A stretch of 64,000 nucleotides of DNA from Tetracentron sinense (Eukaryota; Streptophyta; Magnoliopsida; Trochodendrales; Trochodendraceae): contig CM026562.1 of NCBI GenBank assembly GCA_015143295.1, positions 16,954,041 to 17,018,040 of the forward strand, read 5' to 3'. The position numbers and the translations under genes are program-made. The notes beneath the pieces were generated by a model that saw only the letters and a program-made list of their open reading frames with translations, did not search any database and was not told the DNA's origin. Numbering within the stretch: position 1 is the stretch's first letter; every line of letters starts with the position of its first letter. This document shows positions 2,204 through 63,232 of the stretch, in pieces.

Positions 2204-3440
2204 CTTTCACGACATCGTCGGATGAACGTGCGTCTCTCTCTGACAGGGCAAAGACTCGGCCCTGTGTGGCCGAGCGAGGAGGTCATGTAGACTGTGAGGC
2301 CCTCGAAGCCTGAGAAGAGCTAGGCTGAGATGTCTGCCTAATCGGGGGCCTGCTCCTCTGAGACTGAGCTGGCATATGACGTCGGGGACAATCTCTAACC
2401 ATGTGGCCTTGGTCACCACAATGGAAGCAACTTCCTGTAACCCTCCGGCATTCGCCCGCTGGATGCCTCCTTCCACAAAGGGTGCAGATATCATGCGCAT
2501 AGGTGGGAGGAGCATATCCCGTAGCCTGAGTCATTGCGGGGCGAGGAGCCTGAGGAAAAGCTGGGTGAAAAGTCGGTGGAGCGAAAGGGCGGGGAGCCTG
2601 TGGTGTAGAATATATCCTCTGTGACTGAGTTGGCCCTACGAACTGATACAAGCTAGTCCTTGCTCTTTTCTCCCCTGAACTACTCGACTGTCCTTTCTCC
2701 ATTCCTCTTCTCTTGAAGAACTCCTCGGAGTTCGACTCGGCCAAAAGTGCCTTGTCCACTACTTCTGAATATGTCTCATGTCTGAACATTGAGACTCGGT
2801 CCTTGAGGTAGGCCTTCAACCCCCTCTCAAATTTTTGGGCTTTCATAGCCTCGGTCGCTATCATATGTGGAGCAAATCTGGATAGTTCCGAAAACTTAGC
2901 TTCATAAGCCGCTACCGACATATTACCTTGCTCCAAGGTAATGAACTCAACTTCCATCTTTTCATTCATCCCTATTGGGAAGTACTTCTTGTTGAAAACG
3001 TCCAAGAATTCCTCCCAAGTCCAGTCTTGACCTTGTCGGGTCAACTATCGGGTCCGAAGTGCGGACTTCCACCAATGATCGGCCTCACCTTCAAGCATGA
3101 AGGTGGCCCAAGTAACCTTTTCCGCCTCCGTAGGCGCCAATACAGAGAATATCTTTTCTAATTGCCGAATCCATCCTTCAACAACAAGCGGGTTAGTACT
3201 CCCACAAGAGGTTGGAGGCCTCATCCTCCGGAAAGCCTCTATTCCGGCTTGTGCTCGATTAGGAGGAGCCGGTATAAGCGCCGCATTAGGTGGAGTAGCC
3301 GGTTGCCTTGCTGCTAGCATAGCCAAAGTCTCGGCTATTGAGGCAAAAGCTTGGACAAAATCGGGTTGATCATCACCTGATGGAGCATCACCTCTATTGC
3401 CCCTTGTGTTGTACCCGCGATCCCGGGTATTGCGTCTCAT
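2204..3440 (-). pseudogene. gag: G1 gag (capsid/nucleocapsid), exon 1 of gag-pol
   Basis: Gag would form the cytoplasmic virus-like particle. I start at the ATG at 3440 (MRRNTRDRGYN), which matches the start context of the other gags here. The retrotransposon gag domain has an EADHWWKSA motif and WTWEEFLDVFNKKYFP. Near the C end are a cysteine-rich CTLCGRRHPAGEC stretch and a zinc knuckle, CFHCGDQGHMVRDC. Two in-frame stops interrupt it: TAG at 3045-3047 within an RELTRQ-like motif, and TGA at 2283-2285. The frame then continues through GRVFALSERDARSSDDVVK up to a splice donor at 2203. It is a recognisable but inactivated gag. Confidence 0.88.
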
Positions 3441-3754
3441 GATTTCTCCTGAGAACGACAATACAACATGAGTCTAACTTGGATACGCATTTAGTACAAA
3501 TTTCACAATTCACTCAATACATATTCATCAAGCATATTTACTAAACAAAATAACGCACACATGGTATACAACCCAATATCATAACATACAATCCATGTTC
3601 CTAGCGTAGGACTCTAAGTTTGGTTGAAGTTCAATCCATTTGACTAAGACTAACTTGTTAGTCCATACTTGGAATACACTCTTTCCTAACACCTAATGCC
3701 TTGTTCAATTAAAGTATCTAGTACCAAGCAACCCTAGGGACTCTACTACCTAGA

Positions 3755-4061: not shown

Positions 4062-4202
4062 TCAACAGTAGTCAAGGTATGGCCACACATCGGGGTCTCG
4101 ATCCGCCTGAGACTGTAGTTGAATAGACGGCTCTCTCTCCTCTATGTACTCTTCCTCGACCCAAGGCTTCGGGTCGAGGGCTCTCTCAGTACCTGCCGAT
4201 AT
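4062..4202 (-). pseudogene. LTR small frame, G1 copy (start codon lost)
   Basis: This is an uninterrupted 46-codon frame beginning ATA-TCG-GCA-GGT where other LTRs have ATG, and ending TGA. It contains KPWVEEEYIEE and ends PYLDYC. The PWVEEEY core and the stop position match the small frames of the other LTRs. The upstream ATG inside the GCTGAG stem is in frame here (MLSRTF), so it may serve as an alternative start. Function unknown. Confidence 0.45.
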
Positions 4203-8273: not shown

Positions 8274-8396
8274 CTAGTAGTAGCCCTCCACATGAGGCTC
8301 CTCAGCAGGGGCCTCCACGACATAATCCTCTTCCTCCCATGGACCGAGAGCACATATGTCAAAAGGAGTGGGCGCTCCACTAACACCTGCCAACAT
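8274..8396 (-). CDS. LTR small frame, G2 copy (intact, 40 aa)
   Basis: ATG at 8396, stop TAG at 8274-8276. It reads MLAG, then TPFDICALGPWEEEDY, then an acidic proline-containing tail ending EGYY. S1 has PFDVCAPGPWVEEEY in the same place, although most of the surrounding LTR DNA differs. No signal peptide or membrane segment is evident. The ATG lies just downstream of the GCTGAG stem. It could be a leader peptide, the end of an exon, or chance; the cross-family match favours coding. Confidence 0.5.
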   Translation of the reverse strand: MLAGVSGAPTPFDICALGPWEEEDYVVEAPAEEPHVEGYY

Positions 8397-21849: not shown

Positions 21850-21871
21850 TCCCACAGACGGCGCCAATTTT

Positions 21872-29800: not shown

Positions 29801-30228
29801 ACACCAGTGAAGTCAATACAAACTCTCACCTTCCCGCTCTTCTTAGGCACAGCCACAACATTGGCTATCCAATCAAGGTACTGCACCTCCTGAATGAACC
29901 CGAACTGAATCAGCTTGTCAATCTCCTCGTTCACTGCATCATGATAAGCTGGAGCAAGCCTCCGAGGTTTCTGCTTCACTGGAGGGATAGCAGGATCAAC
30001 ATTGAGGTGGTGACAGATAACACTCGGATCGATTCCAGTCATGTCTTTGTGAGACCATGCAAAGACATCAAGGTTCTGCCTAAGGAAACTCAGCAACTCG
30101 AGCTCTTCCTCCGCTGTCAAGCTCGTCCCGACCTGCAACACCTTTGGCTCTTCTTCCGTTCCCAAATTGACAGCTTTCGTGGGCTCAACGGAAGGTCTGC
30201 ACAACGATGTTTCTGAGCTCTCTTCCAC
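26887..30228 (-). CDS. pol: T1 pol: reverse transcriptase, RNase H, second RNase H, integrase
   Basis: An open 1113-codon frame, continuous with gag-protease apart from stops upstream. RT has VPKKSGKVRVCIDF, FMDGYSGYNQI, MPFGLKNTGATYQ and catalytic VYIDDIVVKS near residue 239. The first RNase H lies at about residues 355-480. A second, archaeal-type RNase H follows at about 535-660 (WLLYVDGSSNSSGSGLGIVL, NNEAEYEALLLGL, HADALA). The integrase zinc domain is near residue 770 on (HEGICGIHSGG, CSQCQRF). The core holds LDIVGPF, TDNGKQF and GLAEAANK, the D-D-E residues. There is no chromodomain. It has no start of its own; the first in-frame methionine follows a stop at 30250-30252, so expression would require the damaged upstream frame. 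Confidence 0.93.
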   Translation of the reverse strand: MEESSETSLCRPSVEPTKAVNLGTEEEPKVLQVGTSLTAEEELELLSFLRQNLDVFAWSHKDMTGIDPSVICHHLNVDPAIPPVKQKPRRLAPAYHDAVNEEIDKLIQFGFIQEVQYLDWIANVVAVPKKSGKVRVCIDFTGVNKACPKDSFPMPRIDRLINATAGHEMLSFMDGYSGYNQILLAEADREKTTFITERGLFCYRVMPFGLKNTGATYQRLMNLMFGSLLGKTVEVYIDDIVVKSRVRGTLVTDLAEPFSVLRSFNLKINPEKCTFGVTSGKFLGYLVSQRGIEANPAQIRALLDMPEPKSKKEIQKLTGRIAALNWFISKSSDRCKPLFELLRKDSIFAWTPECSRAFLALKEYLGSAPILSVPEPGEILYLYLSVSEQALGSVLVRSCDGVEKPVYFISKTFLKAECNYSKLEKVCLALVFSAEKLRPYFHAHSIVVITTYSLKVVLGRPELAGRMSKWAVALSEFDIQYQARSSEKGQAMAGFLSDFPVKEEAEEMVVDLRELPIEVDNGDIVVDGAESSEWNGWLLYVDGSSNSSGSGLGIVLISPENIKVQKMSRLGFTDSNNEAEYEALLLGLESARELQISMLRVFCDSQLVVNQVNGVYDCKDYRMKQYATLIRSQCEAFTVVEIRHTRRDENRHADALAYLASMVQADEPKAILMEFQEYPSITLQAQWEVFFVNPVPSWMIGLVAYLKDGILPISVKESRRIQFKASRYTLVQGELFRKSFGGPLLKCVHPADVERILAELHEGICGIHSGGRTIAHRALGQGYFWPYMQADAQKYVKKCSQCQRFARLIHALAQELSTVSQPWPFARWGLDIVGPFPRAPGNLIFLLVATDYFSRWIEVVPLARIREQEVKKFLWEHIICRFGIPQSIITDNGKQFSGRLIAEFCSELKIKHVFSSPYYPQGNGLAEAANKNILNALKRRLEDSKGKWTADLHNVLWGYRTTPRSPTNETPFSLAYGMEAVIPTEISLPTVRSWHNKKKDEEKDQNTELMAIYLDLLEEKREDASIQMRRYQQRLRKAYNKKVQRRVLQVGDLVLRRVFQNTRELNSGKLGPNWEGPYIVEWLGSPGVCYLKDLQGNLISKSWNIMNLRQFFQ

Positions 30229-32673: not shown

Positions 32674-32710
32674 GATCACAAAGAGCAAAAAGGGGGGTTC
32701 GTTTATTATT

Positions 32711-32727
32711 TCCCATAGACGGCGCCA
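32711..32727 (-). other. T1 primer-binding site
   Basis: The minus strand reads TGGCGCCGTCTATGGGA, the TGGCGCC-type site common in Tat elements (probably tRNA-Asp). It lies five bases from the LTR-B end. A second copy is at 21850-21866. Confidence 0.75.
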
Positions 32728-32732
32728 ATTTT

Positions 32733-33636
32733 TGTGGGGGAAAAACTCCGGAAAGGACACGCGTCAGCAACAGCTCCTCCCACGCTCTGGTTTACCGGTA
32801 GAAGGTTGGAGTGGAGGGTGTGACACCCTGACCTGTACTCCAATGCTAAAGTCAGTAGATGTAGAAGATGATGAACAGTACACACTGAAAGAGGTACTGA
32901 AAGTTACGCAAGGCTCTGGGAAGCACTGAACACGTATACTCTCGAATACGGATGATGAACAACTAACCAACTCCTAAGCACTAAAAATCACGGGGTATTT
33001 ATAGGGTAAGGTTGGTATGGCCATCGATGACCATGGATGGCCATAGGTGTCCATACCATGTGTTTTGCACTCATTGCCAAATATGTCAAGTCATATCTGC
33101 CGCTGGTTGCATCACACGCGAGAGCCTCCTAAGCGTCCAATCGGACGGGATCGAACAGTACGCAGAAGTGACCAGCATTAAATTCCAAGATAGTGCTTTC
33201 AGCATGCAACAGTGTTTTCGGCACGCCTGTCAGAATTATGGATCGCCTCCTGATCACTTCCTCCTACAAGTCGGTCTCGTTGTTGACTCGAGCTCGGTTA
33301 CGGTGTAGTTGTCTTAGAATACAGCCAGGACATCGTTGTCGGTGAGACAACGGGCTCGTTGTTCGTATACGACAAAAACGTTGTCAAGAGTACAACGGTT
33401 ACGTTGTGCTTCAGACAACGAGGACGTTGTCAAGCCACAACGGAAGCGTTGTTCTACAAGAGAACAAAGACGTTGTAATGTGCACAACGGGAACGTTGTG
33501 CATCAGACAACGTGTGATCCCTCTATTTTAAGCACGTGACCCCAACTCGTGTCCACGTGTCACTTTCGTGAACAAAACAACAAAAATGAGCTCGTTCTCC
33601 AACGCTAAGTTGATTTTACGAATTTTATCCGTTACA
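32733..33636 (-). repeat. T1 LTR-B (5' LTR, 904 bp)
   Basis: Same length and borders as LTR-A, about 24 base differences by eye, most of them transitions. A TATAAATA box (minus) is near 33000. The CAACG/CGTTG-dense part is 33315-33520. Its right neighbour GTATC is G3 LTR sequence. Confidence 0.93.
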
Positions 33637-36348: not shown

Positions 36349-36467
36349 CTAGTAGTACTCATCTACATGAGGCTCCTCCATAGGTTCCTCAACGTACTCC
36401 TTCTCCACCCAAGGACCAGGAGCACATATGCCAAAAGAGCTGCAGCTCCAATATCACCTGCCGACAT
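36349..36467 (-). pseudogene. LTR small frame, G5 copy (one-base frameshift)
   Basis: ATG at 36467 (MSAGDIGAA). One base is missing in the next codons relative to S1. The other frame then reads PFGICAPGPWVEKEYVEEP and ends DEYY at the stop 36349-36351. The downstream part matches S1 and G2 at protein level. Confidence 0.42.
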
Positions 36468-39137: not shown

Positions 39138-39230
39138 CTAGGTAACCATCTGAATGACATCCTGCTCACCCTGAGCAGCCTCGATCCAAGAAACCGGTGT
39201 ACATATGTCATATAGTGTACCTACCGACAT
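39138..39230 (-). pseudogene. LTR small frame, G6 copy (30 codons, early stop)
   Basis: ATG at 39230 reads MSVGTLYDICTPVSWIEAAQ, then GEQDVIQMVT and TAG. G7 copies have CAG at that TAG and run 12 codons further, so this stop is probably a C-to-T change. Confidence 0.42.
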
Positions 39231-39974
39231 AAAAGTACGGCTGAGTATGGAATACTCAGTGAGTACAAGCTACTAGCTAACAATAGTAATAACATTAATA
39301 TGTCATACATGATACAGTTCATCAAAAAGATACATAATCAGAGTGCGGAAGCTAAAAGAAATAATAATGTAAAGTAAATTATAAACAACATATTTTAACT
39401 CATGCATTGTAAACTTGTACTCAAAATTCATGACTTGTTCTTGAAAATACTTTTTGTGGTTTCCAAAACTTGCTTGCCGTATGTAGAGCCCCGGACCTTT
39501 TCACATTTAATGCATGACACTTTCATTTCCATTTTGCCTTTAAAGAGGTATAATTAATAAATAAGGAAGAAATTGGAAATTCCAAAATATTAGAAATGTT
39601 CCTTTTCGAAGTATGAATCCAACGCAAGTTGAATCGTCAAAATCAGACGAACGAGTCAAAAGATATGGCCAAAACAGTATCGACCTGCAGGCAATCGATC
39701 GTTGGGTTATGCACTTGAGGACGAGCTCTGGAGAGGCACTAAGGACGTAGCTCGGAAGGCACTAAGGACGTAGCTCTGATAACGTGCTCTGATAAGGCAC
39801 AGACAACGCATAGACAATGTACTCTGATAACGTAGCTCTAGATAACGTATACGTTGTGCATCCGTTGTGCAACAGACAACGGGTACGTCGTGCAGTAGAC
39901 AATGTGTACGTTGTACAGCAAACAACGTGTACGTTGTACAGCTCACGACGGGCACGTTGTACATAAGACAACGT

Positions 39975-40405
39975 GACAACGGGTTCGGCACCCTTCACAG
40001 CACAACGTACTCGGTGCTATTCACAGCACAACGTACTCGGCACTATTCACAGCACAACGTGTTCAGCACTATTCACAGCACAACGTGTTCGGCACTATTC
40101 ACAGCACAACGAGTTCGGCACCCTTCACAGCGCAACATACTCGGCACTATTCACAGCACAACGTGTTCAGCACTATTCACAACACAACGTGTTCGGCACT
40201 ATTCACAGCACAACGTGTTTGGCACTATTCACAGCACAACGTGTTCGGCACTATTCACAGCACAACGTGTTTGGCACTATTCACAGCACAACGTGTTCGG
40301 CACTATTCACAGCACAACGTGTTCGGCACTATTCACAGCACAACGTGTTTGGCACTATTCACAGCACAACGTGTTTGGCACTATTCACAGCTCAACCTGT
40401 TCGGC
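39975..40405 (+). repeat. S1 26-bp tandem array
   Basis: About 16 copies of a 26-base unit, CACTATTCACAG joined to CACAACGTGTTCGG. Before it, 39840-39975 is rich in CAACG/CGTTG pairs. The unit has no stop in any frame, so three overlapping frames appear open through it. Confidence 0.92.
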
Positions 40406-41325
40406 ACTCGTGTTTTTGCAGAAATTTCAGTAAGGGTATTATGGTCTTTTGGTCGGTTCACTCTTACCTTAAGAGTTTAACCCGAGCCTTTAGGGCTCAT
40501 TCTCAACACTTAGAGGATTTGGGAGATTAGAAGAGAGGAGAAAGGGTTTCCTAAGCTAGGGTTTTGCTTTTGGAGAAGAATCAAAGGGATTTTGAGACCC
40601 TAGATCACTTCAAGTCCGGTTTTTCTCCAAGATCACGGCTCAAGCACTCGTGGAGAGCTTTCCCCAAGCTAGGGCAGTACCTCACGGTCATTTTTGGAAG
40701 GGGTTTCTTCCTCATTTCTTCAAGGTCGGTACTTCTTACTACCCTCCTAGTTATAGTTCCTCTTTTCCCTTTATTTCTTTCGATTTTCTTTCATTTACAC
40801 ATGTGCTATAAGATGGATGGTTGTGAATGGTGAATGGAGATGGAATGGGCGATTGCATGCCAAGGGTTGTATTGTGATGATTAAAATGGGGAGGGCATTG
40901 TATCCATAATAAACACACCTTTATGATGTGAGTAAACTCACCTAGAAAAGCATGATTTAGGTTTAAATGAATAATGAATAATGAACACACCATGTTTGAT
41001 GAAATGCCAAGGTGAATAAAATGAGTTGTAAATTAGGAAATGCATGCATAATAAATTATGAATATTGCTAGGGCCTATGATAGTGTGTTTTCTTGCTTTC
41101 CCTAAATGATTTGAATATTACATTGCTCAATCATTGATGTTATATGTGTCGTGAAATTACCCAAATGTCATATTTAAATTTAAATGCAAGTATGTACACG
41201 GTTTCCACGAGCACGGCATGCATGACATGATTTATCGAGGTTTTCAAGAACATGGTTAGAGGTGGGACATATCCTACAATATGTTTTACCTCGCTTTTCA
41301 CAAGAAAACAAGAACCAACATTCCA

Positions 41326-41460
41326 CGAGGGGTCTCCCCTCACTCACAAGTGCATATCATGAAGAAGGGCCTCCCTTCCCTCGCAAGTACATACATATCA
41401 TGAAGAAGGGTCTCCTTTCCCTCGCAAGTGCATTGCATAAAGAAGGGTCTCCCTTCCCTC
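41326..41460 (+). repeat. S1 LTR hairpin units
   Basis: GAGGGGTCTCCCCTC, GAAGGGCCTCCCTTC, GAAGGGTCTCCTTTC and GAAGGGTCTCCCTTC, separated by CTCACAAGTGCAT-type linkers. GAGGGG/CCCCTC against GAAGGG/CCCTTC is a paired change. The third unit has one mismatch. Confidence 0.75.
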
Positions 41461-41843
41461 TCAAGGCATCTCTCAAGCGCATCTCACAAGGATATCTCAC
41501 AAGTGTATCTCACAAGTTACATGATCACAAGCAAGCACGCATGACATGCATGACATGACACGTACGACACGCTCGACAAGATCAAGTAAGACAAACACGA
41601 CAAGCTTTCTAGTACGAAGAGATATTTCAAGCCAAGTCAAGTGCACGATGTTTTCAAGAGGTTTTATCGGCTTTCTACGAAATACAAGCATGATTATAAA
41701 TTGCTTTACTTCCTTGTATGATATGAATTGTTTCTATCTAACATATATGAATTGCTCCTGATTTATGTATTGCCATTTTTATGCTATGACTATTGGTTAG
41801 TATTTGGTACCCGCTGAGTATTCCATGCTCAGCCGTACTTCTT

Positions 41844-41963
41844 ATGTCGGCAAGTTCTGAGGGAGCTGCTGCTCCATTTGATGTTTGTGCTCCTGGTCCA
41901 TGGGTGGAGGAGGAGTACGTCGAGGAGCCTTTGGAGGAACCTCCCGTAGAGGGTTATCAGTAG
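41844..41963 (+). CDS. LTR small frame, S1 copy (intact, 39 aa)
   Basis: ATG at 41844, stop TAG at 41961-41963. It reads MSASSEGAAAPFDVCAPGPW and then an acidic VEEEYVEEP-type tail ending EGYQ. It begins about 20 bases after the GCTGAG stem. The match with G2 (PFDICALGPWEEEDY) continues to the stop. Function unknown; it would lie in the 5' leader or 3' end of the transcript, depending on where transcription starts. Confidence 0.5.
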   Translation: MSASSEGAAAPFDVCAPGPWVEEEYVEEPLEEPPVEGYQ

Positions 41964-42334
41964 GTGGTGTTAGATTCTGAGTGGAATTGCTGTGGGTGAG
42001 ATGAGAGATATACATTCATGTATTTTGGCGGGTCCGTCCGCACTTTCTTTTGGATTCCTTTTGTGTAAACTTGGATTCGTATATACATAGAGGTTTGTTT
42101 AGACTTCCGCTGTGCTATGTTAGAATATGTTTCCGCTGTTTATATCCTCTATTGTATATGCTCTGTGGGTTTTTACAGGTTGGTTTGTCAAGCAAGTCAT
42201 GTAAGCCATGATTAGTCGTCCAAAGTTCACTCTAACTCCTAGGGTGGGTTTTGGGTCGCGACACCGTATTTACAACTTATTCTTGTCTTGTTCTTGTATC
42301 ATGGGAATCACACATGCCTTGTTTTGTTCTTGTT

Positions 42335-43282: not shown

Positions 43283-45271
43283 TGTTGGACATGATGCCCA
43301 GAAAAGTCATTTAGATTGTTAGAACTTTATTAATTAGATTAATAAATGCTTCTTATTAATCTATTATGTATTCATTATGGGTAGTTGACCATGATCATGA
43401 GATGATCTATACGATATGAGATATTGATAAAGGACCATAGGATATATTATAGGAAAGTTATGTGATTAGATTATCATAGGTAGATATAACTTTCCGGTTC
43501 CTTATACCTTATATAGTCACAGCTGTGGGTGAAGCTGGGCACTTCACTTATGTGGCTGCCAGAATGCAAAGATGTTCTCAATAGTTGAGATGTAGTTCTA
43601 TCTCGAACTATTGTAGTGAAGACTACACATCAGCATATGGGTGCTTAAATTTACACTGACTAATTGCATTCAATGAGAGACCTCTTGCATAAACATACTC
43701 TCAGATAGTTGGTCTCTCATTCACATTGAACGGTTTCAATGATCCCTAGATCTGATGAGTTCATCTATAACTGGGCAGTGATCTGACTGTTTTGATTCCA
43801 CCAACGTATTTTCTAACTTAGGGAATACAATACAATGACAGTTGGATAGCCAGAAAGTTGTTCGAGTCATGATGAATTTCAAACAAGAAATCCATGCTCA
43901 TTAATTTGAGAGATTATCCAAGTTCCGGGTAAGACAGTTGATTAAGTTCAAATCCTGCGAAGGTGATTTTGAAAACAAAATAATTTTTGAAATATTCTTT
44001 TATTAAAAGGTATTATACTTATAAAATGATTTTTTCAAAAAAATTTTCATGAGAAATTGTTTCTCATGGCTTAATCATAAGTCTTGGAAACCCAGATGAT
44101 TTGCAATGGGCTATGGGTTAGATAGTATGTCAATCTCAAAGGCCCATCAGGGATAATGTATTTGGAAGGGTAAATCGAATTTAAAAGTTCATGTGGCGGG
44201 ATCCGTAATGGTTAATGTTCATACACTGGGATTCAATTGCAACATGGATATCTCACGTCACTTGCAATTCCGATGTAATTCCCATTTAGGGTCAATGGGA
44301 TAACATTAGATAAGCCAGGGTAAGAATGTCCCAGAGCAATCTGTGGAGGTGCTCACATAAAAAATACAAGCTCAATAATTGATTAAAAGTTAATCAATTA
44401 TTTTAAGTGATTAAAAGTTAATCATTTAATTAAATAGATTAATAGTTAATCTATTGTTTAAATTAATTGTTAATTTAAACTAATGGATTATTTTAGTAAT
44501 TATTTAATTAACATAATTAAGGGGAAATGGGTTTGACCCATATCCATAAACCCATTAAAATGGACCTTTAATATGGGCCAAAGCCCATGGGTTTAAACCC
44601 TAGGGTGGGGCGCCGACTTGAGGAATCCTAATTGGATTAGGATTTGTTTAATTGAATAATTATTGAAATATAATTCCTTTTATTATGGAATTAAAATCCA
44701 AGTGTTGGATTGCAATTAGGATTAAAATGTTATTGTAATTAGATTACAATAAGGAGTTTTAACTCCTCAAATCCCACACCTCATAGAAGCTCACGCCCCC
44801 CCTTGTGGATTCCTAGTTTGATTAGGTTTCCTACTTTGGTGTAGGATGTTGACTTATCCCTTTTAATTAAGGAATCCTCTTATAATAGGGACTCTTTAAT
44901 TAATAGAATTACTATAATTAAAGTAATTATAGATTAAGTAGGAGTTTATTTAATTAATAATAAGAGTTATAGTTAATTAATAAATCCTACTAGATAAGAT
45001 CAAGTTGGAGTAGGATTAGGATAAGATCCTAGTCTATAAATACCCTCATTCCCTAGACCATTAAGTAGAATTCTCCATAATTTTTTCTCTCCTCTCCTCT
45101 CCTCTCTCTCTCCAAACTGTGAGCCCTAGGGGAGACCCCTAGGGATTTTCGTGAGCTATATTGGTGGTCCTAGTTGGGTTTTCCAAATCTAGGGTTTTGG
45201 AACCTTAGTATTATTGGTGATAGAAGGTCTACACCATTAATCCATCTTCTTCCTCTTGCTTCTATAATTCC
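43283..45271 (+). repeat. C2 5' LTR, left part
   Basis: Starts TGTTGGACATGATGCCC and matches the C1 LTR to ATAATTCCAA at 45271. A TATAAATA box is near 45034. No genes are seen. Confidence 0.88.
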
Positions 45272-46135
45272 AATTGAGTTATTTACGCTGCTTCCACTTA
45301 ATCTTGGGGACATGTATGATGCTTCTAAGATCTACGTGATGCATGCAGGATGTGTGTGATGCTTATGATGTGTATGGAGTGCATACCATTCATGATACTT
45401 ATGCGATGCACGATTCTTATGCCATGCATGAAATGCATGCTATGTATGAATGCTCATGATATGCATCAAAGTGCATGATGCTCATGCTATGCATGATGCT
45501 CATGTTATGTATGATGCTTATGTGATGCATGATGCTTATGCCATGCATGAGTTATGTTCATTTGTGATGTAAGACACATTAAGTACAGTTTAACCAATCA
45601 ATTTACACTAGATACGCATAATAGTATATGTATCAAAACCTATGTCCATATTGTCGCATCGACTCTAAATACTCTAAACTTGTAAGACCTAAGATCATCC
45701 TATAGCCTCCCTTGGGAAACAATTCCCTATAGAAACCTAATGACACAATGTATGACAAGGACCTACCCCTCCCTTGTCAAACAACACCTAGGCTAGACTC
45801 TAGTCTAAGTATCACATCACTCATGGGTCTAACTGGAAAACACGTTGACATATCATAAGTGTTCATTAAGCATGTAACATACAGTATACACACAACACAT
45901 AGCATATAATACCACATAACAATACATCATATTATAGTATAAGTATATAGAATTTTTGCTTTTCTAGCGTAAATGTACACTAACTTCGGTTGAAATCAAC
46001 CTATTTTGGACAAGGACTAAGGGATTAGTCCACACTTGGAATACGACTCTCTTCTTAGACCTAATGTCTTGTATTAATCGTGGTATCGAACTCTAAACGA
46101 CCATAGAGACCTAATGTCTACTCTAATACCACATC
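45272..46135 (-). other. G7 extra leader fragment with degenerate primer site
   Basis: It matches the main G7 leader. The primer site reads TGGTATTAGAGT (46120-46131), two changes from the functional form. It contains a tandem array rich in ATGCAT and GATGCT(C/T)ATG at 45310-45560. Confidence 0.8.
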
Positions 46136-46399
46136 TGTCACGCCTCAAAATACCCCCTAGGAGTTAGGATACTTTGGCGACATGACTTAACCTTAATCAA
46201 TCCTGCAAAGAGTATACAAGGCATGCCAAATAGTGATCCGAAAAATTTTCTTTAACATAAATGTAATTCCAAGTGTCAACGTAAAACAATGACTGGATAA
46301 AATACAATAATCAAAAGGGTGCAAATGCTTGAGTTACCCACTCATGCTCACATGAAAAATCTCCAAAAGGAAATCCCAAAATACATTTCTCTCTCTCTC

Positions 46400-46528
46400 T
46401 CATCCCAACCTATGGCCACAGGCCAACCCTAACATCTGGCTAACCATCCGAATAACCTCCTGCTCTCCTTGAGTTGCCTCAATCCAAGGGACCAGAGTCC
46501 ATATGTTATATAGTGTACCTGCCGATAT
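46400..46528 (-). pseudogene. LTR small frame, G7 left copy (ATA instead of ATG)
   Basis: Open for 42 codons: ISAGTLYNIWTLVPWIEATQ onward to a TGA at 46400-46402. Its twin at 54901-55029 begins with ATG. The ATG in the GCTGAG stem is in frame. Confidence 0.42.
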
Positions 46529-46850
46529 AAAAGTATGGCTGAGCATGGATTACTCAGCGAAGTACAAGCTACTAACTGACAAGAGTAATAACATTAATAT
46601 GTAATACAAGATACAGATCATCCAAAAGATACATAATCAGAGTGCGGAAGTTAAAACGACATAACAACGTAAAGTAAATCATGAACATCATATTTTAACT
46701 TACGCAATGTAAATTCGTATTCAAAAGTAATGACTTATTCTTGAAAATACTTTTTGTGGTTTCCAAAACTTCCTTGTAGTATTTACAACTTATTCTTGTC
46801 TTATTCTTGTATCGTGGGAATCACACATGCCTTGTTTTGTTCCTATTTAG

Positions 46851-47330
46851 CTAGTACCCGAACTATGAAATGGACGGACATACTAGGTTCTTGTTATTCT
46901 TGCTTGTCTTGTTTCACTAGTACCCGAACTATAAAATGGACGGACGTACTAAGTTCTTCTCATGCTCAACTAATGCCCGGACTATAATGGAATGGAACAC
47001 ATTAGCCTCGTGTCTTAACTTGACTAGTGCCCGGACTATGGTGGAACGGAACACACTAGTTATTCTTGCTTTACTAATGCCCGGACTATAACGGAATGGA
47101 ACACATTAGTCTCCTTGCCTTGCCTTGACTAGTTCCCGAACTATGGTGGAACGGAACACACTAGTTACTCTTGCTTACTAATGCCCGGACTATGATTGTA
47201 CGGAACACATTAGTATCTAGCTGGACTAATGCCCGGACTATAATGGAACGGAACACATTAGCCTCCTTGCTTGACTTGACTAGTGCCCGGACTATGGTGG
47301 AACAGAACACACTAGTTATTCTTGCTTGCT
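46851..47330 (-). repeat. G7 left LTR hairpin-unit array
   Basis: Nine units with the same paired arms as in G6 (CTAGTA/TACTAG, CTAGTG/CACTAG, CTAATG/CATTAG); two units have one-base arm mismatches. Confidence 0.82.
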
Positions 47331-49352
47331 TGCCTTGCTTAACTTGTGAGCCAGGTATGACATATTGTAGGATATGCCCTACCCTTGACATTCATGCTTG
47401 TTTGACTTGTGAGCCAGGTATGATATATTCTAAGGATATGCCCTACCCTTGACATTTATGCTTGTTTATTCACATTTCTTATTCGTGTCGTTTTCTTATA
47501 TACATATACTTGAAAAGTCGATTCATGAATGCATATGTACTTGTGGGTGTAGTTTGTAAACATAATAATAATAGCATCGAAAAATTGAGGATAATAGATA
47601 GCATTTGAAGAATTATATGAACATGAGAGATTTAAGGAATTCATAAAGCATATCATCATTTTTACCATTCTTGGGGAAATATCCCTATCTCATATCTCAT
47701 AGATTAGGTTTTACATTTTACACAAGCATTTAATCAAATATCTTACATGCCACGTTTTCTTCATTTTCATTAATTTGTTTTTAGCCGTAGGTTTTTATCT
47801 CATTCATGCATTTTATCAAACACATTAAGCACAACTCCTTTCTAACCATTTAATTTCCTCTTTTTATGGTTGTAATTTCATCAACATTCAAGTCTGTTCG
47901 TTATGTATACAATACCCTTCCACCTTTTTCATCACATAACACCGATCAGATCCATATGGCATCCATCACCTTAACCACACATTCCCACATCCATCATTCC
48001 TTCTTTTTCTTGATTAAATTTAGGGATTTAATCAAACAAGTCAAGAAAAGAATGAACTAAAGAAATCTATAATTATGCTTTTAAAATAAACCTAGGTTAT
48101 TACTAAAGTAGTTAGTAGGGTGTACTAACCTTGAATAGGGGAAGAAACCCTTGAAAATGTCGAGGAAGAATGCTGCTGAGCTTGGAGAATGTGCTCCTCA
48201 CGTGCTTGAGCCGTGGATTCAGAAATCCAAGCTTTTGGGATGCTCTAGGGTTTCTAAACCCTTGATCTTTCTCCACTTGATGCCCTAGGAGAAAACCCCT
48301 TTTCTCCCCTCTTACTCTCTCTCAAAATATTGCTAAGGGTGTTTGTGAACACCCTTGGCTCGAGCCAACCCTTAAAAATAAGGGTGGAGTGGCCAAAAGA
48401 CCAAAAAATCCCTAATAAAATTTCTGCAAAACGCGTAGGACCGATAGATGACCGATCTACCGGTAGTGGACCAATCGATCGGTGCTTATGACCGATCTAC
48501 CAGTAGTGGACTGATCGATCGGTGCATATGACCGATCTACCGGTAGTGGACCGAGCGATCGGTAGTGGCCGGTGCTCTGCAAAAATGTGCTTCGGTATTT
48601 CGGCCATAACTTTTGACTCGCCTGTCCGATTTTGACGATTCAATTGCGTTGGATTCTTCTTTCAAAGAGGAACAACTTTTATGTTTTGGAAAAATTATAA
48701 TTCTTCTTTATTGGTGGACCAAAATGCGCCTAAAGCGGACTGGTCTGCAATGGGTTGCGACAGCCTAGATTTTCAACAGTCTCGACTTTGGAAATTGGAC
48801 TTTTGACTCAACCCAGACTCAAAATCAGGGAAAGTGATCAGCATGAACCTTAAAGAGGGTTCTAGTGCCTTTCCAAAAATTCAATAATCACTCGATTCTG
48901 AGCAACGATGAGTAAACTAGAGCCCTTTAAAGTTGAGATAAATGCCGAGACATACCTTTTCAACACCTAGAATACCTCGAGTGTTTTCACACTCTTTTCC
49001 CTTGTGTCCAATACCCTAATCACACCTCATAAATCCTTCTCCATAGGTTTTTAACCCACCTCAATGATAATTAAATTCACACCGACATGCATGAGAGGCT
49101 CCGGCCTCTTTATGCCTCATGCACTAGCACTATTCACCAACAACCCATTTAAACAGTTAGAATATTTTATACCCTTGATTTTACCCACTTAGAGATCTTT
49201 ACACTCTTTTTAAGACTCAAACCATGTACCTAAAACCCTCACTTGACTAATCATAATATCAAGAACACAATTGGAGGCCTTAGGCCTTTACACACACACC
49301 ATGTAAGGGCACTATTCACATGAACAGTGAACTCAATTTCTGGGGCTCTACA

Positions 49353-49679
49353 TCCTCCCCTCCTTATAGGAATTTTGTCCTCGAAATTTGGATGAAACAA
49401 AATCAAGTGGAAACAACTTTCCCGCCCTTGACCTTCAACTCAGTCACCTTGTTACACTAAAATACATACTAATTCATCAACAATCAACACATGACTAGGC
49501 ACTTCCTTGTTGGTAAGGTACTTAGGTTTTTCATATCACTAAACACCCATGAAACATAAGAAAACTTACATAGCATAATATAATAAGTTTATACATGAAG
49601 GCAACATACTGAACACAACATTTCCTCATCCTTTTTCCAACATCCGAGCACTTAACATCTAGCCTCAGCATGGCAACTT
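49353..49679 (-). other. G7 polypurine tract and pol-less spacer
   Basis: The minus strand reads ATAAGGAGGGGAGGA directly before the LTR. The roughly 300 bases before it match G5 and contain no pol sequence. Confidence 0.75.
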
Positions 49680-50773
49680 CTGCTCTAATTCACCTAGAGA
49701 GGCAACTATGAGAGCTACTTTGGCTTGCTTCCTAGAGGTTGAGCCGGAAGCGGACGATGAGGACAACCTTTGAGCAAGTGGCCTTGATCACCACAATGGA
49801 AACATCCACCCTTGAGCTTTCAACAATTTCCGGCATGCTTTCTTCCACAATGTGCACAGGCCCCAAACGTGGGTGAAGAAGATTGCACTTGTCGAGTGAT
49901 TTGCGTAGTTGTAGGGCGAGGAGCCTGGGGTGTAATAGAAGGGCTCTACACCTGTGTATGTCTTGAGGACTGGTATGGGGTCATTCTAGCCCTCCTCTCC
50001 GACTGTGTTGAGCCACTGGATTGGCCTCTCCACAATTCTCTCTTGTAGAGTTCCTCAGCATTCGTTTCCACTAACTGGGCCTTATCCACAACTTCGGCGT
50101 AGGTCTCGTGCCTGAACATGGAGACCCGGTCTTTAATGTAGGCCTGCAATCCCCTCTCAAATTTCCTGGCCTTCATTGCCTCTGTGGCTATCAGATATAG
50201 GATGAACCTTGACAATTCAGAGAACTTGGCTTCGTATTTTGCCACTGTCATGTTCCCCTGCTCCAAGGTAATGAACTCTAATTCTTTCTTTTCTCTAACT
50301 CCTATTGGGAAGTATTTCCTGTCGAAAACATCTACGAACTCTTCCCAAGTCCATTCTTGACCCACTCAATTCAAGTCCCTCATTCTAATGGCGGATCTCC
50401 ACCAGTGATTAGCCTCACCCTCCATCATAAAGGCGGCCCAGGTGACTTTCTCTACCTCAGTAGGCAGTAATACTGAATACAGCTTCTCCAGCTGCCTGAT
50501 CCATGCTTCATCAACCAATGGATCAATGCCACTATAAAATGTCGGTGGCCTCATCCTCTGAAATGCCTCTATCCCCGTGGCATGATGTGTAGGAGTAGGT
50601 ACAAGTGCCACAGTAGGAGTTTGGGTAGAGGGCTGCCTAGCTGCAAGCACTGCTAGTGTCTCTGCTATGGATCCCAAGACTTGGGTGAGATCAGGCTGCT
50701 CATCCCCCGATGGAGGAGGAGATGCTCCACCTCTCCTAGTGTGGTTTCCACGACCCCGATTTCCACGTCTCAT
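49680..50773 (-). pseudogene. gag: G7 gag
   Basis: ATG at 50773 (MRRGNRGRGNHTRRGGASPP). The gag domain has EANHWWRSAIRMR, WTWEEFVDVFDRKYFPIG and KYEAKFSELSRF. The cysteine-rich FGACAHCGRKHAGNC and the knuckle GCFHCGDQGHLLKGC lie at about 49740-49870. In-frame stops are TGA near 50366 and others near 49946 and 49810. The frame ends soon after the knuckle, and the polypurine tract follows without protease or RT. Confidence 0.85.
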
Positions 50774-51842
50774 GATCGAATCCTGAGAACAATAGCAAAG
50801 CATGAGCCTAGTTTGGAACCCAACTTATCTCGTCCCTAATTTCAACGATCATTTCATGTTTATGCATACATAACATACATAAGAATACATCAAGGCATAC
50901 AATAAGAAAATATTAACATACAAGAAATGTTTCTTAGAGTAGAACACCAAGCTCGGTTGGAATTTCAATTGGTTTGGAATAAAACTAATTTGCTAGTCTA
51001 CTTAAGAACAATAACATGGCCTGAGCACAACTTGAACTCAAGCTCCTAACAATTTAGTTCTTCTGCTCATTTTTCAAGTATTAAATTAATGAGTAGTTTA
51101 TCCAATTGTGTTATTTACGCCGCTTCCTCTTAATCTTGGGGACATGTATGATGCTTCTAAGATCTACGTAATGCATGCAGGATGTGTGTGATGCTTATGA
51201 TGTGTATGGAGTGCATACCATGCATGATGCTTATGCGATGCACGATGCTTATGCCATGCATGAAATGCATGCTATGTATGAATGCTCATGATATGCATGA
51301 AAGTGCATGATGCTCATACTATGCATGATGCTCATGTTATGTATGATGCTTATGCGATGCATGATGCTTATGCCATGCATGAGTTATGTTTATTTGTGGT
51401 GTAAGACACATTAAGTACAGTTTAACCAATCAATTTACACTGGATAGGCATAATAGTATATGTATCAAAACCTATGTCCCTATTGTCGCAACGACTCTAA
51501 ATACTCTAAACTTGTAAGACCTAACATCATCCTATAGCCTCTCTTGGGAAACAATTCCCTATAGAAACCTAATGACACAATGTAACGACCCAAGATACCC
51601 CCTAGGAGTTAGGGATACTTTAGGCACATGACCGCCGTGTCACATCATCCGGTCATGGCACATAAGGCAAACATATCAACCTACAAGAGCATACAAGGCA
51701 TACTAAAAGTGGAACTGAAAATTTCTTTATACATAAACCTACAATTTGTATTCTAAGTCTAAACCAACACTTTATACAAAATGTAAATTCTAAAGTGGAC
51801 ATTCCCCACTTTCAAAATACACAACCCTCTTCCTCACATCCC

Positions 51843-51977
51843 TCAATAATAGTCTAGATAGGGCCTCCTATCTAGAGCTCCATCATCCTGGTGATGATCC
51901 ATGGTAGGCTCTGACTCGTAGTACTCCTTCTCTATCTAGGGCTCAGGAGCGTGTGCATCCACAGTACCTACTGAAGT
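51843..51977 (-). pseudogene. LTR small frame, S2 copy (start lost, one stop)
   Basis: It starts at ACT in place of ATG, then TSVGTVDAHAPEP, TAG where W is expected, IEKEYYESEP and an end of PYLDYY before TGA. The PYLDY ending matches the G1 copy. Confidence 0.4.
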
Positions 51978-52254
51978 CAACAATTCGGCTGAGTGTGGAA
52001 TACTCAGTGTATACAGACTACTAAATAGCATTACCATAATTATCAACGATAGCCTAGGCATTTATCAGAGTAAAACAGACAAAAGTGAAGCGTACCAAGC
52101 ATATGACTTAGAGCAGTTCATAAAACATATATCATGTGAGCATTTCTTTACAAGGTACATATCATTGATCATTTCACTAACCATGTTCTTCAAACCATAA
52201 CAATTCCAATACTTAGAGTGATCCATAAGACTAATAACAAATCGACACTTTACA

Positions 52255-52480
52255 AGCTAGGAGATAGACTCCCTTGAGTTCAAAATGAAAACAATACTTT
52301 ACAAGCAAGGTGGTCCCTTAAGAACACCCTTGAGTTCAAAACAAAGCGATACTTTACAAGCAAGGAGGTAAGCTCCCTTGAATCAAAATCAAGCAATACT
52401 TTACAAGCCAGGAGGTAAACTCCCTTGAGTACGAAAATCAAAGCGATACTTTACAAGCCAGGCTTAAGCCCTTGAATCCC
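52255..52480 (-). repeat. S2 LTR hairpin units
   Basis: About five units of roughly 45 bases containing CAAGCAAGGAGGTAAGCTCC and CTTG, so GGAG/CTCC and CAAG/CTTG arms can pair. Confidence 0.6.
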
Positions 52481-54620
52481 GAAAATCATTCTTTGAGCGA
52501 ATCCACTTTTGAGAAAAACCTCTTTCAGCAAAACCATACTTGGAAACCTTAACTTAGAACAAAAACCCTTTTGAGCCACAATCTTAACTTATGAACTTGA
52601 TAGAATACTTTTCTTGTGAGAAATCATCTAATCATGCAATATTTGTGAACATAGAGTGCATATAGTACGTGTGAGCATCATGTGGATTTAGGAACCTTGT
52701 AGACATAACATCACATTCATAGAACTCAATACTAGTGATAACTTACATCTTATAGCAACTTAGGAGTATATTTAAACATATGATCCCTTAGAGGCATTTA
52801 ACCAAACACATAGAATGCATAATAATACTAGTTTACATCCAAGTATAAACTCAACATCCAATCAACCCAAGAACATACTTCAATCATGGTTTTCTTAAGA
52901 GGAATAATACTTGGTAAGTAGTAGAGTGTATCTACAATTTGTCTTATCAAAATCATGCTTTGAATCTTGCTTATAGTATGGGAATTACAAATATGGCCAA
53001 AACATCCTAACTTTCATCAAAACCCTTTGTTTAAACCATAGAAAACAACGTACACATCAATGAAATATAGCAAGGCAAGTTAGAAGAGTGTTCTACAATT
53101 TGTCCTATCAAACTCATGCTTTGAATCTTGCTTATAGTATAGGAATTACAAATATGGCCAAAACATCCTAACTTTCATCAAAACCCTTTGTTTAAACCAT
53201 AGGAAACAACATACACATCAATGAAATATAGCAAGGCAAGTTAGTAGAGTGTTCTACCTTGGTGAAATCAATGAATTTGATTCCAAAGGCTTTGAACAAG
53301 TGAGAACCTTGAGTTCTTAGTTGAAAAATACCAAAGAAGGGAAGATTTGATCTTCTTCTTCAAGCTTGAGCAAACCCCAACTTTCCCCCTTCTTCTCCTC
53401 TCAAATGTCTCTAAAAATTATGCTCTAAGGGTTTCTAAAACCCTAAGGCAAGAGTTGGGCCTTTTATAGGCAAAGAGGTGGTGGTTAAAGACTAAAAAAC
53501 CCTTAATGAAGAAAATCAGCGTAGGACCAATAGATGACCGATCTACTGGTAGTGGACCGATTGATCGGTGGTTTTGACCGATCTACCGGTAGTGGACCGA
53601 GCTCTCGGTATTGACTGGTGCTGCAGAACGTACTTCAGTATTTTGGCCATAACTTTTGATTCAGTGCTCCGATTTTGATGATTCAACTTACGTTGGATTT
53701 TTATTTTAAAGGGAAACAACTTTTATGTTTTGCACAAATCCCAATTCTAAGATTTGAGTGGTCCAAATGGGACCACAAGTGGACTAGTCCAACATGACTG
53801 TTGAACTGACAGCAGACCACCATTCGGAAATCCCACATTTGACTTAACTTCTAATCATAATCTGGCAAAGTGATAAACATGAAGTTTAAAGAGGGCTTGA
53901 ATACATTTCCAATGGTTCAATAGTCACTTTATTTCGATAAGATACGACGAAACTATAGATCCCACAAGTTGAGGGAATGGTAAGAAATCCACCCTCTTTG
54001 ACACTTAGAGTATTTTATACTCTTGTTTTAGTTCACAAACCCACATACATCATACCTTATGTTGCATCTACCAAACTAACACCATAACACTCATTTTAAC
54101 ATGTGACACCTCATTTCCATTCAAACAAAAACTAAGGTCACATGGAAAACTTGGCCTTTACATACACCGTTCATAGACACTATTCACACACTATTCACAG
54201 CACTATTCACTCTACAGTGATCCCAAGTTTCGGGGTTCTACACACAATGTATGACAAGGACCTACCCCTCCCTTGTCAAACAACACCTAGGCTAGACTCT
54301 AGTCTAAGTATCACATCACTCATGGGTCTAACTGGAAAACACGTTCATATATCATAAGTGTTCATTAAGCATGTAACATACAGTATACACACAACACATA
54401 GCATATAATATCACATAACAATACATCATATTATAGTATAAGTATATAGAATTTTTGCTTTTCTAGCGTAAATGTACACTAACTTCGGTTGAAATCAACC
54501 TATTTTGGACAAGGACTAAGGGATTAGTCCACACTTGGAATACGACTCTTTTCTTAGACCTAATGCCTTGTATTAATCGTGGTATCGAACTCTAAACTAC
54601 CCTAGAGACCTAATGTCTAA

Positions 54621-54632
54621 GCTCTGATACCA
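54621..54632 (-). other. G7 primer-binding site (initiator tRNA-Met)
   Basis: TGGTATCAGAGC on the minus strand, four bases from the LTR. Confidence 0.9.
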
Positions 54633-54900
54633 CTTCTGTCACGCCTCAAAATACCCCCTAGGAGTTAGGATACTTTGGCGACATGACTTAACCTTAATCA
54701 ATCCTGCAAAGAGTATACAAGGCATGTCAAATAGTGATTCAAAAAATTTTCTTTAACATAAATGTAATTCCAAGTGTCAACGTAAAACAATGACTGGATA
54801 AAATACAATAATCACAAGGGTGCAAATGCTTGAGTTACCACCTCAAGCTCACATTAAAAATCCCCAAAAGAAAATCCCGAAATACATTTCTCTCTCTTTC

Positions 54901-55029
54901 TCATCCCAACCTATGGCCACAGGCCAACCCTAACATCTGGCTAACCATCCGAATAACCTCCTGCTCTCCCTGAGCTGCCTCAATCCAAGGGACTAGAGTC
55001 CATATGTTGTATAGTGTACCTGCCAACAT
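54901..55029 (-). CDS. LTR small frame, G7 right copy (intact, 42 aa)
   Basis: ATG at 55029, TGA at 54901-54903. It reads MLAGTLYNIWTLVPWIEAAQ and on to a glycine-leucine-rich end. The ATG inside the GCTGAG stem is also in frame (MLSCTF), which would add six residues. It keeps the PWIE core but has a different tail from G2 and S1. Confidence 0.48.
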   Translation of the reverse strand: MLAGTLYNIWTLVPWIEAAQGEQEVIRMVSQMLGLACGHRLG

Positions 55030-55344
55030 AAAAGTACAGCTGAGCATGGAATACTCAGCGAGTACAAGCTACTAACTAATAAGAGTAATAACATTAATAT
55101 GTAATACAAGATACAGTTCATGCAAAAGATACATAATCAGAGTGCGGAAGCTAAAACGACATAACAATGTAAAGTAAATCATGAACATCATATTTTAACT
55201 TACGCATTGTAAATTCGTATTCAAAAGTAATGACTTATTCTTGAAAATACTTTTTGTTCCAAAACTTGCTCGCCATATTTCTAACTTATGCTTGTCTTAT
55301 TCTTGTATCGTGGGAATCACCAATGCCTTGTTTTGTTCCTGTTT

Positions 55345-61545: not shown

Positions 61546-62639
61546 GCGCGAATCAAACTCTTTAGTGCGTGATTTTAGGGTTTTCACCCCTTGGCCTATA
61601 AATAGGGGATCATTTTGGGGGGTTTTGGGTTACCCTAAACCTAGAGAGAGATCTTAGAAGAGAAGGGAAGAGAGTGGAGGATTGCAAGAGGGGTTTTTGG
61701 ATTTGGAGAAGAAGAGCACAAATCGAGCCTTGATCTCGCTCCTACGCGCCATTGGAGCTTGGATCTCCAACATCAAGCTTGGGTTTCGCTTCTACAAGCT
61801 TCGTCAAGCCTTTTCAAGCATTGGATCAAAGGGATTTCATCCCATAAGGTAGATACACTCTACTAGGTTCTAATTTCATAAACCCTTAATGAAAAGCATG
61901 ATTTTCTTGACAAGTATAGTTATATATAGCCTCTTATATGTAAAAATACACTCTTCTAGCAATTGATTTCATGAAACCCTTTCTACATCAAGATAAAATC
62001 CCATGAATGATGGTGTGAATTAAATGTGATGATGTTATGCTTTCAACCAACAAATAAAATATGGTAATTTTTGAGTTGTTCTATATGTTAGTATCCAAGA
62101 TGAAAAGCATGTTAAAAGCAACAAGTTTTGGGAAGAACAAGTAGAAAAACCTTATTTTAAATGTGATTGGAATGGTGTGATGTTATTGTATATGGATTAT
62201 GGTGATGGATGAATTATGTTGAGTATGAGACATATGACCATATGTAAAGGGTTTTCCCTAATGTCTACCATGTTATATCACAACTGCTATACGGACACAT
62301 ATGCATATGCATGATCGAGTTTTTCTAAATTATGGGTATCCCAAAAGAAGAAATACATGTATATAAGATGCAATACAAGAATAAGAAGAAGAAGAGTATA
62401 AGATGCAAATGAACCACACGAAAAGTATAAGATGTAAATGAACCAAATGAATAGTACAAGAAGCATAAGAAGTATAAGAAAAGTACAAGAAGTAAAAAAG
62501 AGGTCTACGGAAAAGTATAAGAAGCACAAGATACATACGGAAAATACAAGAAGCACAAGATGTTACAAGAAATACAAGAAGATGGAAGGTATACGGAAAA
62601 AGCCGACAGGGATGCGACGATAGCAGGCCACCTGAAAGG

Positions 62640-63093: not shown

Positions 63094-63232
63094 ATGTTGG
63101 CAGGTCCCTTCGACATTTGTGGCCGAGCGTCCTCAAGAACCATGGGTCGAGGAAGAGTCTGTTGAGAAGGAGGAGACTTGGGGTAGTCTTCAGCAGCAGA
63201 GGGCTCAGGAGGAGCAGAGGGCTTTTGGTTAG
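63094..63232 (+). pseudogene. LTR small frame, G8 copy (frameshift)
   Basis: ATG at 63094 reads MLAGPFDICG. After a one-base shift the next frame reads RPQEPWVEEESVEKEETWGS and a Q/E-rich end at a TAG (63230-63232). Confidence 0.42.

What the first reader, a model, noticed from the sequence alone, without database searches (positions are those of the whole stretch)
41844..41963. A small reading frame conserved in nine LTR copies of several families
Sequence: frames at 4062-4202, 8274-8396, 36349-36467, 39138-39230, 41844-41963, 46400-46528, 51843-51977, 54901-55029 and 63094-63232 start at the same place after the GCTGAG stem. They share MSAG/MLAG, a PW(V/I)E core, an acidic stretch and, in five copies, a YY-, YC- or YQ-type end. 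G2, S1 and one G7 copy are intact; others have single breaks. Inference: a peptide or exon within the LTR has been kept while surrounding DNA diverged. I know of no such gene in Tekay elements.
Basis: partly seen in the sequence, partly recalled or inferred. Interest (0 to 1): 0.85.

Follow-up and report, generated by a model that had tools for sequence, protein, structure and literature searches.

The report
Tiny conserved gene inside retrotransposon LTRs
The long terminal repeats of plant jumping genes in this stretch carry a short reading frame of about 40 amino acids whose changes follow the pattern of a real protein-coding sequence, which suggests that these elements carry a previously undescribed small gene reached by RNA splicing.

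Summary
The nine frames exist as described, about 400 nt before the 3' end of LTRs of Ty3/gypsy elements. In four comparisons 54 of 105 substitutions fall on the third codon position (p 1e-4). Over all windows and phases of the 720-nt region the frame gives the strongest period-3 signal (0 of 2000 permutations). dN/dS is 0.21-0.28 for BvE, DvH, FvH, AvG (DvF 0.36); gag 0.10. At DNA level the frame is not generally better conserved than its flanks. Further anatomy: a leader stretch almost free of ATG ends at a shared AAG|GT donor (9 of 9), followed by 1.0-1.6 kb rich in ATG. Acceptor-like CTCAG| lies 10-11 nt before the frame's start and 8-10 nt before the start of gag. Best explanation: an LTR-resident micropeptide gene, read from an alternatively spliced mRNA. 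No transcript data and no copies outside the window could be obtained; start codon and acceptor are unresolved.

The parts
41844..41963 (+). Frame E (39 aa, intact, MSASSEG..PWVEEEYVEE..VEGYQ*), in a solo LTR
8274..8396 (-). Frame B (40 aa, intact, ends VEGYY*)
36349..36467 (-). Frame C, 1-nt deletion; downstream piece compared alone: dN/dS 0.19 to E and 0.19 to B
39138..39230 (-). Frame D (30 aa, ATG to early stop; differs from F and H by a 4-nt gap after that stop)
46400..46528 (-). Frame F (42 aa open, ATA in place of ATG)
54901..55029 (-). Frame H (42 aa, intact)
4062..4202 (-). Frame A (46 aa open, ATA in place of ATG, ends PYLDYC*), in the 5' LTR of an element with gag, protease and RT
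51843..51977 (-). Frame G (ACT start, TAG in core, ends PYLDYY*), in a solo LTR
63094..63232 (+). Frame I (frameshifted)
41814..41832 (+). Stem CTGAGTATTCCATGCTCAG before frame E; the arms CTGAG and CTCAG are the same in 9 of 9 copies
40497..40724 (+). Proposed leader exon 1 of LTR E (5' end set by me at the aligned TATA position +30), no ATG
40725..40726 (+). Donor GT of LTR E (CAAG|GTCGGTAC); the same donor at 5377 (A), 9462 (B), 37492 (C), 48129 (F), 53257 (G), 56625 (H) on - and 61849 (I), 20277 (J) on +
61595..61606 (+). TATA box CCTATAAATAGG of LTR I, 254 nt before the donor
39482..42263 (+). Solo LTR E, 2782 nt, TGTAGAG..GCGACA, with 5-bp target duplication CCGTA on both sides, inserted in the LTR of D
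51581..54242 (-). Solo LTR G, 2662 nt, with target duplication TTGTG; appears nested in the leader of element H
3440..3449 (-). gag start of element A (ATG at 3440, MRRNTR..) with acceptor-like CTCAG| 8 nt upstream; likewise H (ATG 50773, 9 nt) and B (ATA 7618, 10 nt)
54621..54632 (-). PBS TGGTATCAGAGC after LTR H; exact also from 7973 (B) and 3766 (A) on - and from 63515 (I) on +

Best explanation
The frame is a short protein-coding segment that Tekay-like Ty3/gypsy retrotransposons carry inside their LTRs and that purifying selection has kept within three LTR subfamilies (B/C/E, D/F/H, A/G; shown, by codon pattern). Inferred expression: transcription starts near the TATA box in mid-LTR and gives a leader exon almost without AUG. 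Its AAG|GT donor is joined either to an acceptor at the CTGAG/CTCAG stem, so that the micropeptide's AUG becomes the first AUG, or to the acceptor 8-10 nt before gag, giving the gag-pol mRNA; unspliced RNA serves as genome. The micropeptide would be an accessory product made from the same leader, like small regulatory products of spliced retroviral mRNAs. Its biochemical role is not known; since spliced and unspliced RNA must be balanced, a role in RNA fate or in expression control is my guess.
For: Third-position substitutions: BvE 17/33, DvH 10/18, FvH 4/6, AvG 23/48, pooled 54/105; 50/99 without FvH, p 3e-4. Scan maximum z 4.57 in the right phase, 0 of 2000 permutations. dN/dS BvE 0.22, DvH 0.25, FvH 0.28, AvG 0.21, DvF 0.36; piece of C 0.19. 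Gaps inside frames 3, 3, 3 nt in BvE and AvG against mixed lengths in flanks. A neighbouring mini-ORF (MVCQ..) has 5 of 5 B-C changes nonsynonymous, a negative control. Donor AAG|GT in 9 of 9 LTRs holding that region. ATG 3 in 1821 nt of exon 1 against 427 in 10107 nt from donor to frame, 8 copies; J, without a frame, adds 2 ATG in 160 nt. CTCAG| 10-11 nt before the frame in 9 of 9 with no ATG between, and 8-10 nt before the gag start in 3 of 3.
Against: No transcript, ribosome or protein data. ATG is lost in 3 of 9 copies; its context is weak (T or C at -3 in 8 of 9, T at +4 in 9 of 9). The CTCAG| acceptor at the frame lacks a clear pyrimidine tract; GGCAG|GT looks the better acceptor by eye but would remove the ATG. 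The TATA position is degenerate in A, E, F, H. ATG scarcity extends upstream of the TATA (8 ATG in the 400 nt before the donor in 8 copies, 6 of them beyond -200), and dinucleotide shuffles explain part of it (expected 12.8, observed 5, 12 of 2000 shuffles as low). Open frames alone are not improbable (0.29-0.62). 1-nt gap in C and 4-nt gap of D after its stop; I is frameshifted. Between subfamilies dN/dS is higher or undefined (0.26-0.64). DvH and FvH share a branch. No homologue found outside the window.
Confidence: 0.55

Rival explanations
1. Coding, but as the last exon of a longer protein: the acceptor is ATGTCGGCAG|GT, the ATG is incidental, and the upstream coding exon lies elsewhere (for example a gag-derived N-terminus spliced into the 3' LTR).
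For: AG at the exact place in 8 of 9 and ATG in only 6 of 9 copies; a 1-nt length difference between copies lies just before the ATG, so a frame reaching further upstream is not kept.
Against: E, an intact copy, has AA at the acceptor place. Exon 1 is excluded as coding partner by junction stops in A, C, I; no partner exon was found.
Confidence: 0.17
2. A peptide-coding uORF or poison exon: inclusion of the exon places the small frame before gag and switches gag translation off, the peptide sequence mattering through ribosome stalling or not at all.
For: Position between leader exon and gag; a good donor after the stop in B, C, E (GGGTGAGT, GGGTAAGG, GGGTGAGA; sequences) would allow a cassette exon; short length.
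Against: dN/dS about 0.2 over the frame is more than a mere stop signal needs; no equivalent donor in F and H and only weak ones in A, D, G, I, judged by eye.
Confidence: 0.13
3. Non-coding: the segment is conserved as RNA (stem, GA-rich splicing enhancer, 3' processing signal) and the codon pattern is a chance result of few comparisons.
For: Flanks are often as conserved as the frame; stem predicted in nine of nine, though its folding z-score is modest (-3.03 to +0.10); frames A, B, C, E rich in GAG/GAA; open frames alone are not improbable.
Against: Permutation 0 of 2000 over all windows and phases; signal in three subfamilies in the same phase; the antisense frame that would share this phase has stops in A, B, D, F, G, H.
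Confidence: 0.12

Closest known systems
Additional ORFs (aORFs) of plant LTR retrotransposons, including the 5' aORF of Tekay elements (PMC11728184, PMC7264820; passages)
   Same: Extra coding segment beside gag-pol in sense orientation; Tekay lineage; proposed accessory role.
   Different: Known aORFs are described by their place 5' or 3' of gag-pol, and the sunflower Tekay one has about 400 aa; this one is 30-46 aa and inside the LTR. The passages seen do not mention an ORF inside an LTR.
Spliced accessory or subgenomic mRNAs of retroelements: Cer1 CERV (PMC10309623), EVADE and Ogre splicing (PMC12786077), RTBV P4 (PMC5902531); passages
   Same: Spliced RNA of a retroelement gives a product other than that of the unspliced RNA; in RTBV a leader donor is joined to a distant ORF.
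   Different: Here splicing is only inferred; the donor and the micropeptide acceptor lie within the LTR; the product is far smaller than CERV (517 aa).
LTR-encoded retroviral proteins (MMTV superantigen; recalled, no call)
   Same: Coding sequence inside an LTR.
   Different: Animal retrovirus, long protein; no sequence relation tested.

Membership tests
Tekay-type chromovirus (host element of the frame) | Ty3/gypsy pol with chromodomain after integrase | tested here: inconclusive
   J: RT, RNase H, integrase, SH3_Tf2-1, then a Chromo match below the curated cut-off (20.8 of 25.1 bits, E 3.7e-4), followed by the J LTR, which lacks the frame. Frame-bearing element A has gag, protease, RT; its end lies outside the window. 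Clade Tekay was not tested by a tree.
Tekay-type chromovirus (host element of the frame) | Initiator-Met type PBS (TGGTATCAGAGC) right after the LTR | tested here: met
   Exact in A, B, H, I; 2 mismatches in F. That this is the iMet PBS is recalled.
aORF of plant LTR retrotransposons | Open frame conserved among copies beyond gag-pol, under coding constraint | tested here: met
aORF of plant LTR retrotransposons | Located in the internal region, 5' or 3' of gag-pol (internal region is my reading of the papers) | tested here: not met
   The frame is inside the LTR, also in solo LTRs E and G
Retroviral-type spliced accessory gene | Expressed from a spliced mRNA sharing the leader | not testable with these tools
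   Only splice-site-like sequence and ATG distribution; no RNA data
Known protein domain | Match to a Pfam family | tested here: not met
   0 families for frames A, B, D, E, H at E up to 10; C, F, G, I were not given

The most novel reading that the evidence does not exclude
Each LTR of these plant elements, solo LTRs included, is a two-exon mini-gene (promoter, AUG-free leader, intron, micropeptide exon), and the same leader is switched by alternative splicing between a small accessory peptide, gag-pol and unspliced genome: a retrovirus-like programme that I did not find described for plant Ty3/gypsy elements in the searches made.
Probability: 0.4. Interest if true: 0.82.

Novelty: new variant of a known kind. 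Interest (0 to 1): 0.63.

Why it matters
LTRs are treated as non-coding control regions. A selected peptide gene inside them would mean that solo LTRs, common in plant genomes (general knowledge), can still carry a protein-coding unit, and that an abundant plant retrotransposon lineage may run a spliced leader programme. A 2025 review states that plant LTR elements generally lack introns, with Ogre and EVADE as exceptions (PMC12786077, passage). Both points can be tested directly with long-read RNA and Ribo-seq data.

Tried and rejected
Rejected: (1) Coding continuation upstream of the frame: the gap between stem and frame start is 10 nt in A, D, F, H and 11 nt in B, C, E, G, I, so no common frame. 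(2) Exon 1 as N-terminal coding exon with acceptor GGCAG|GT: stops at the junction in A, C, I. (3) Antisense coding: stops in the phase concerned in A, B, D, F, G, H. (4) A second mini-ORF after the later acceptor-like TTTGCAG|GATGG: 5 of 5 B-C changes nonsynonymous. (5) Other period-3 segments in the LTRs: the five top windows of 660 all overlap the frame (one of them by about 35 nt only); frame windows average z 0.55 in the third-position phase, the others -0.05. (6) The simple statement that the frame is better conserved than its flanks: not so in general. (7) Regional folding of the 110 nt after the frame: z -3.36 in G, -0.96 to 1.23 in the other eight.

Led nowhere: protein search with an alignment of six frame peptides (A, B, D, E, F, H of nine), 2 candidates, none at E <= 1; with four peptides joined, 95 candidates, none at E <= 1. 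The database holds some plant gag relatives (7 proteins at E <= 1e-5 among 490 candidates), so it is thin for plants rather than empty. Viral contigs: 9 pattern matches, none confirmed; stem sequence 0 in genome contigs, viral contigs and papers. These collections are mainly not plant, so the negatives say little. The genome search did not complete, so no copies beyond the window. Steinbauerova 2011 is not held. Choices to note: the exon-1 5' end was set by me at the aligned TATA position +30; D is missing from the exon-1 counts, as that part was not found joined to it; C and I are left out of the four main codon comparisons because they are frameshifted (a piece of C was tested apart; I was not). 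Splice-site quality was judged by eye; no splice-site model was run.

Full report
Observation. Labels by frame start: A 4202, B 8396, C 36467, D 39230, F 46528, G 51977, H 55029 on the - strand; E 41844 and I 63094 on the + strand. B, D, E and H run from ATG to a stop without break; A and F are open but begin ATA; C and I are frameshifted; G has a TAG in the core and begins ACT. D stops where F and H read CAG. All nine begin 10-11 nt after the CTCAG arm of a CTGAG...CTCAG stem. Absence of stops alone is weak evidence: random substitutions leave B, E, H, A open with probability 0.59, 0.51, 0.62, 0.29.

Setting. The frames sit about 400 nt before the 3' end of LTRs that start TGTAGAGCCCC or similar and end in ..CGACA..TTACA or similar. 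Exact initiator-type PBS sequences follow LTRs A, B, H and I, and one with 2 mismatches follows F. Element A has gag, protease and reverse transcriptase downstream in the same orientation. LTR J follows a pol with RT, integrase, SH3_Tf2-1 and a Chromo match below the curated cut-off. E and G are solo LTRs with 5-bp target duplications, CCGTA and TTGTG. J lacks the stem and so the frame.

Coding test. Pairwise nucleotide alignments without protein guidance give substitutions by codon position of 8/8/17 (BvE), 4/4/10 (DvF), 3/5/10 (DvH), 1/1/4 (FvH) and 11/14/23 (AvG). Pooled over BvE, DvH, FvH, AvG, 54 of 105 are on the third position (binomial p 1e-4). DvH and FvH share a branch; without FvH it is 50 of 99 (p 3e-4). 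BvC (4/9/13 in B's coordinates) and CvE (6/14/6) are mixed by the 1-nt deletion of C; the piece of C after its break, compared alone, gives 3/2/9 with E and 2/5/11 with B and dN/dS 0.19 for both. In a scan of 660 windows from all pairs the five highest period-3 scores overlap the frame. In the pooled scan the maximum is z 4.57 at +17 to +137 in the right phase; block permutation reaches it in 0 of 2000 (95% point 2.93). dN/dS is 0.22, 0.25, 0.36, 0.28, 0.21 for BvE, DvH, DvF, FvH, AvG; between the more distant classes it is 0.26 (AvB), 0.41 (BvH), 0.50 (DvE), 0.64 (AvH), with poor alignments, and undefined for AvE and EvH. gag in A and H gives 0.10. Gaps inside the frame are 3 nt in BvE and AvG, absent in DvH and DvF up to D's stop (a 4-nt gap follows it) and absent in FvH; C has a 1-nt gap beside a 3-nt one with B; flanking gaps have mixed lengths. 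At DNA level the frame is not generally better conserved than the flanks.

Splicing layout. Aligning the middle of the LTRs shows a shared AAG|GT in A, B, C, E, F, G, H, I and J (9 of 9 LTRs for which that region was located; not located for D), with a CTACTAAC-like block after it in several. A TATA-like position lies 190-334 nt before the donor; it is degenerate in A, E, F and H. From 30 nt after that position to the donor ATG occurs 3 times in 1821 nt in the eight frame-bearing copies (0 in six of them; J adds 2 in 160 nt), whereas the 1.0-1.6 kb from donor to frame holds 427 ATG in 10107 nt. The rise is seen within 50-100 nt after the donor. Two cautions: the stretch upstream of the TATA is also poor in ATG, and dinucleotide shuffles already expect only 12.8 over nine copies (observed 5, 12 of 2000 as low). 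With so many ATG upstream, scanning ribosomes would hardly reach the frame on unspliced RNA, so if it is translated, splicing or a closer start site is needed (inference). gag begins MRR.. at 3440 (A) and 50773 (H), ATA at 7618 (B), each 8-10 nt after CTCAG| with a T-rich stretch before it. The frame begins 10-11 nt after CTCAG|. The likeness suggests a common plan: acceptor, then first AUG. The competing acceptor GGCAG|GT inside the first codons keeps AG in 8 of 9 copies (E has AA); it would drop the ATG and needs another coding exon, which was not found. The stem arms do not vary, so they give no covariation evidence; they may hide or present the acceptor (speculation).

What it might do. 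Five of the nine peptides were scanned and have no Pfam match. Types A, B, E are acidic (net -8 to -10), D -4, H -1, with a W in PW(V/I)E or a variant of it. Size and placement fit a small regulatory product. I rank it as an accessory micropeptide from an alternatively spliced leader mRNA; a role in the balance of spliced and unspliced RNA is a guess by analogy with CERV of Cer1, which is needed for export of unspliced RNA (PMC10309623, passages including part of the abstract).

Literature. PMC11728184 (passages including the abstract) describes conserved 5' aORFs of about 400 aa in a sunflower Tekay group. PMC7264820 (passages) reviews aORFs; the terms 'within the LTR' and 'in the LTR' do not occur in it. 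PMC6317226 (passages) reports Ogre introns. PMC12786077 (passages) says that plant LTR elements generally lack introns except Ogre and EVADE. PMC5902531 (passages) covers RTBV and CaMV leader splicing. PMC7730604 (passages) reports splicing in some expressed sunflower elements and no Tekay among the expressed set. Searches for Tekay with small ORF, Tekay with intron, ORF within the LTR, leader splicing, chromovirus introns and LTR-encoded peptides listed no title or abstract start describing such a frame; of the other papers only listings were seen, the lists were cut at 12-20 rows, and subscription journals are mostly not held.

Verdict. A real coding signature in an unexpected place, from nine copies in one window, with a coherent but unproven splicing model. 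Outside copies and RNA data would settle it.

Noticed in passing
39898-40495: Head-to-tail array of a 26-bp unit inside solo LTR E, reaching about the aligned TATA position (40467), so mostly in the upstream (U3) part.
   Followed up: partly
21458-33636 (- strand): Ty3/gypsy element with 1.3-kb LTRs 98% identical and a 1120-aa RT-integrase frame; an opposite-strand frame downstream of pol (23321-24001) has a Transposase_28 match just below the cut-off, as in antisense aORFs.
   Followed up: partly
45269-57842: LTR F has a polypurine-like stretch before it and a PBS-like stretch after it, and LTR H is of the same family: looks like a tandem LTR-internal-LTR-internal arrangement left by recombination, with solo LTR G nested in the leader.
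   Followed up: partly
after the frame's stop in A, G, I, H (folded) and, by eye, C, D, E: Short stems of different sequence at a roughly like place (GGTGG/CCACC in A, AAAGTGG/CCACTTT in G, GAGCGA/TCGCTC in I, GCTTGAG/CTCAAGC in H), possibly kept as structure; regional folding energy stands out only in G.
   Followed up: partly
exon 1 stretches, e.g. 40497-40724: CAG strongly depleted (7 seen, 60.7 expected in shuffles over nine copies) and CTG too (3 against 15.7); perhaps CHG methylation decay.
   Followed up: no
10181-11618 and 59073-60542: Two stretches with copia-type gag, 78% identical; LTR I begins at 60543, inside the second one's gag frame.
   Followed up: no
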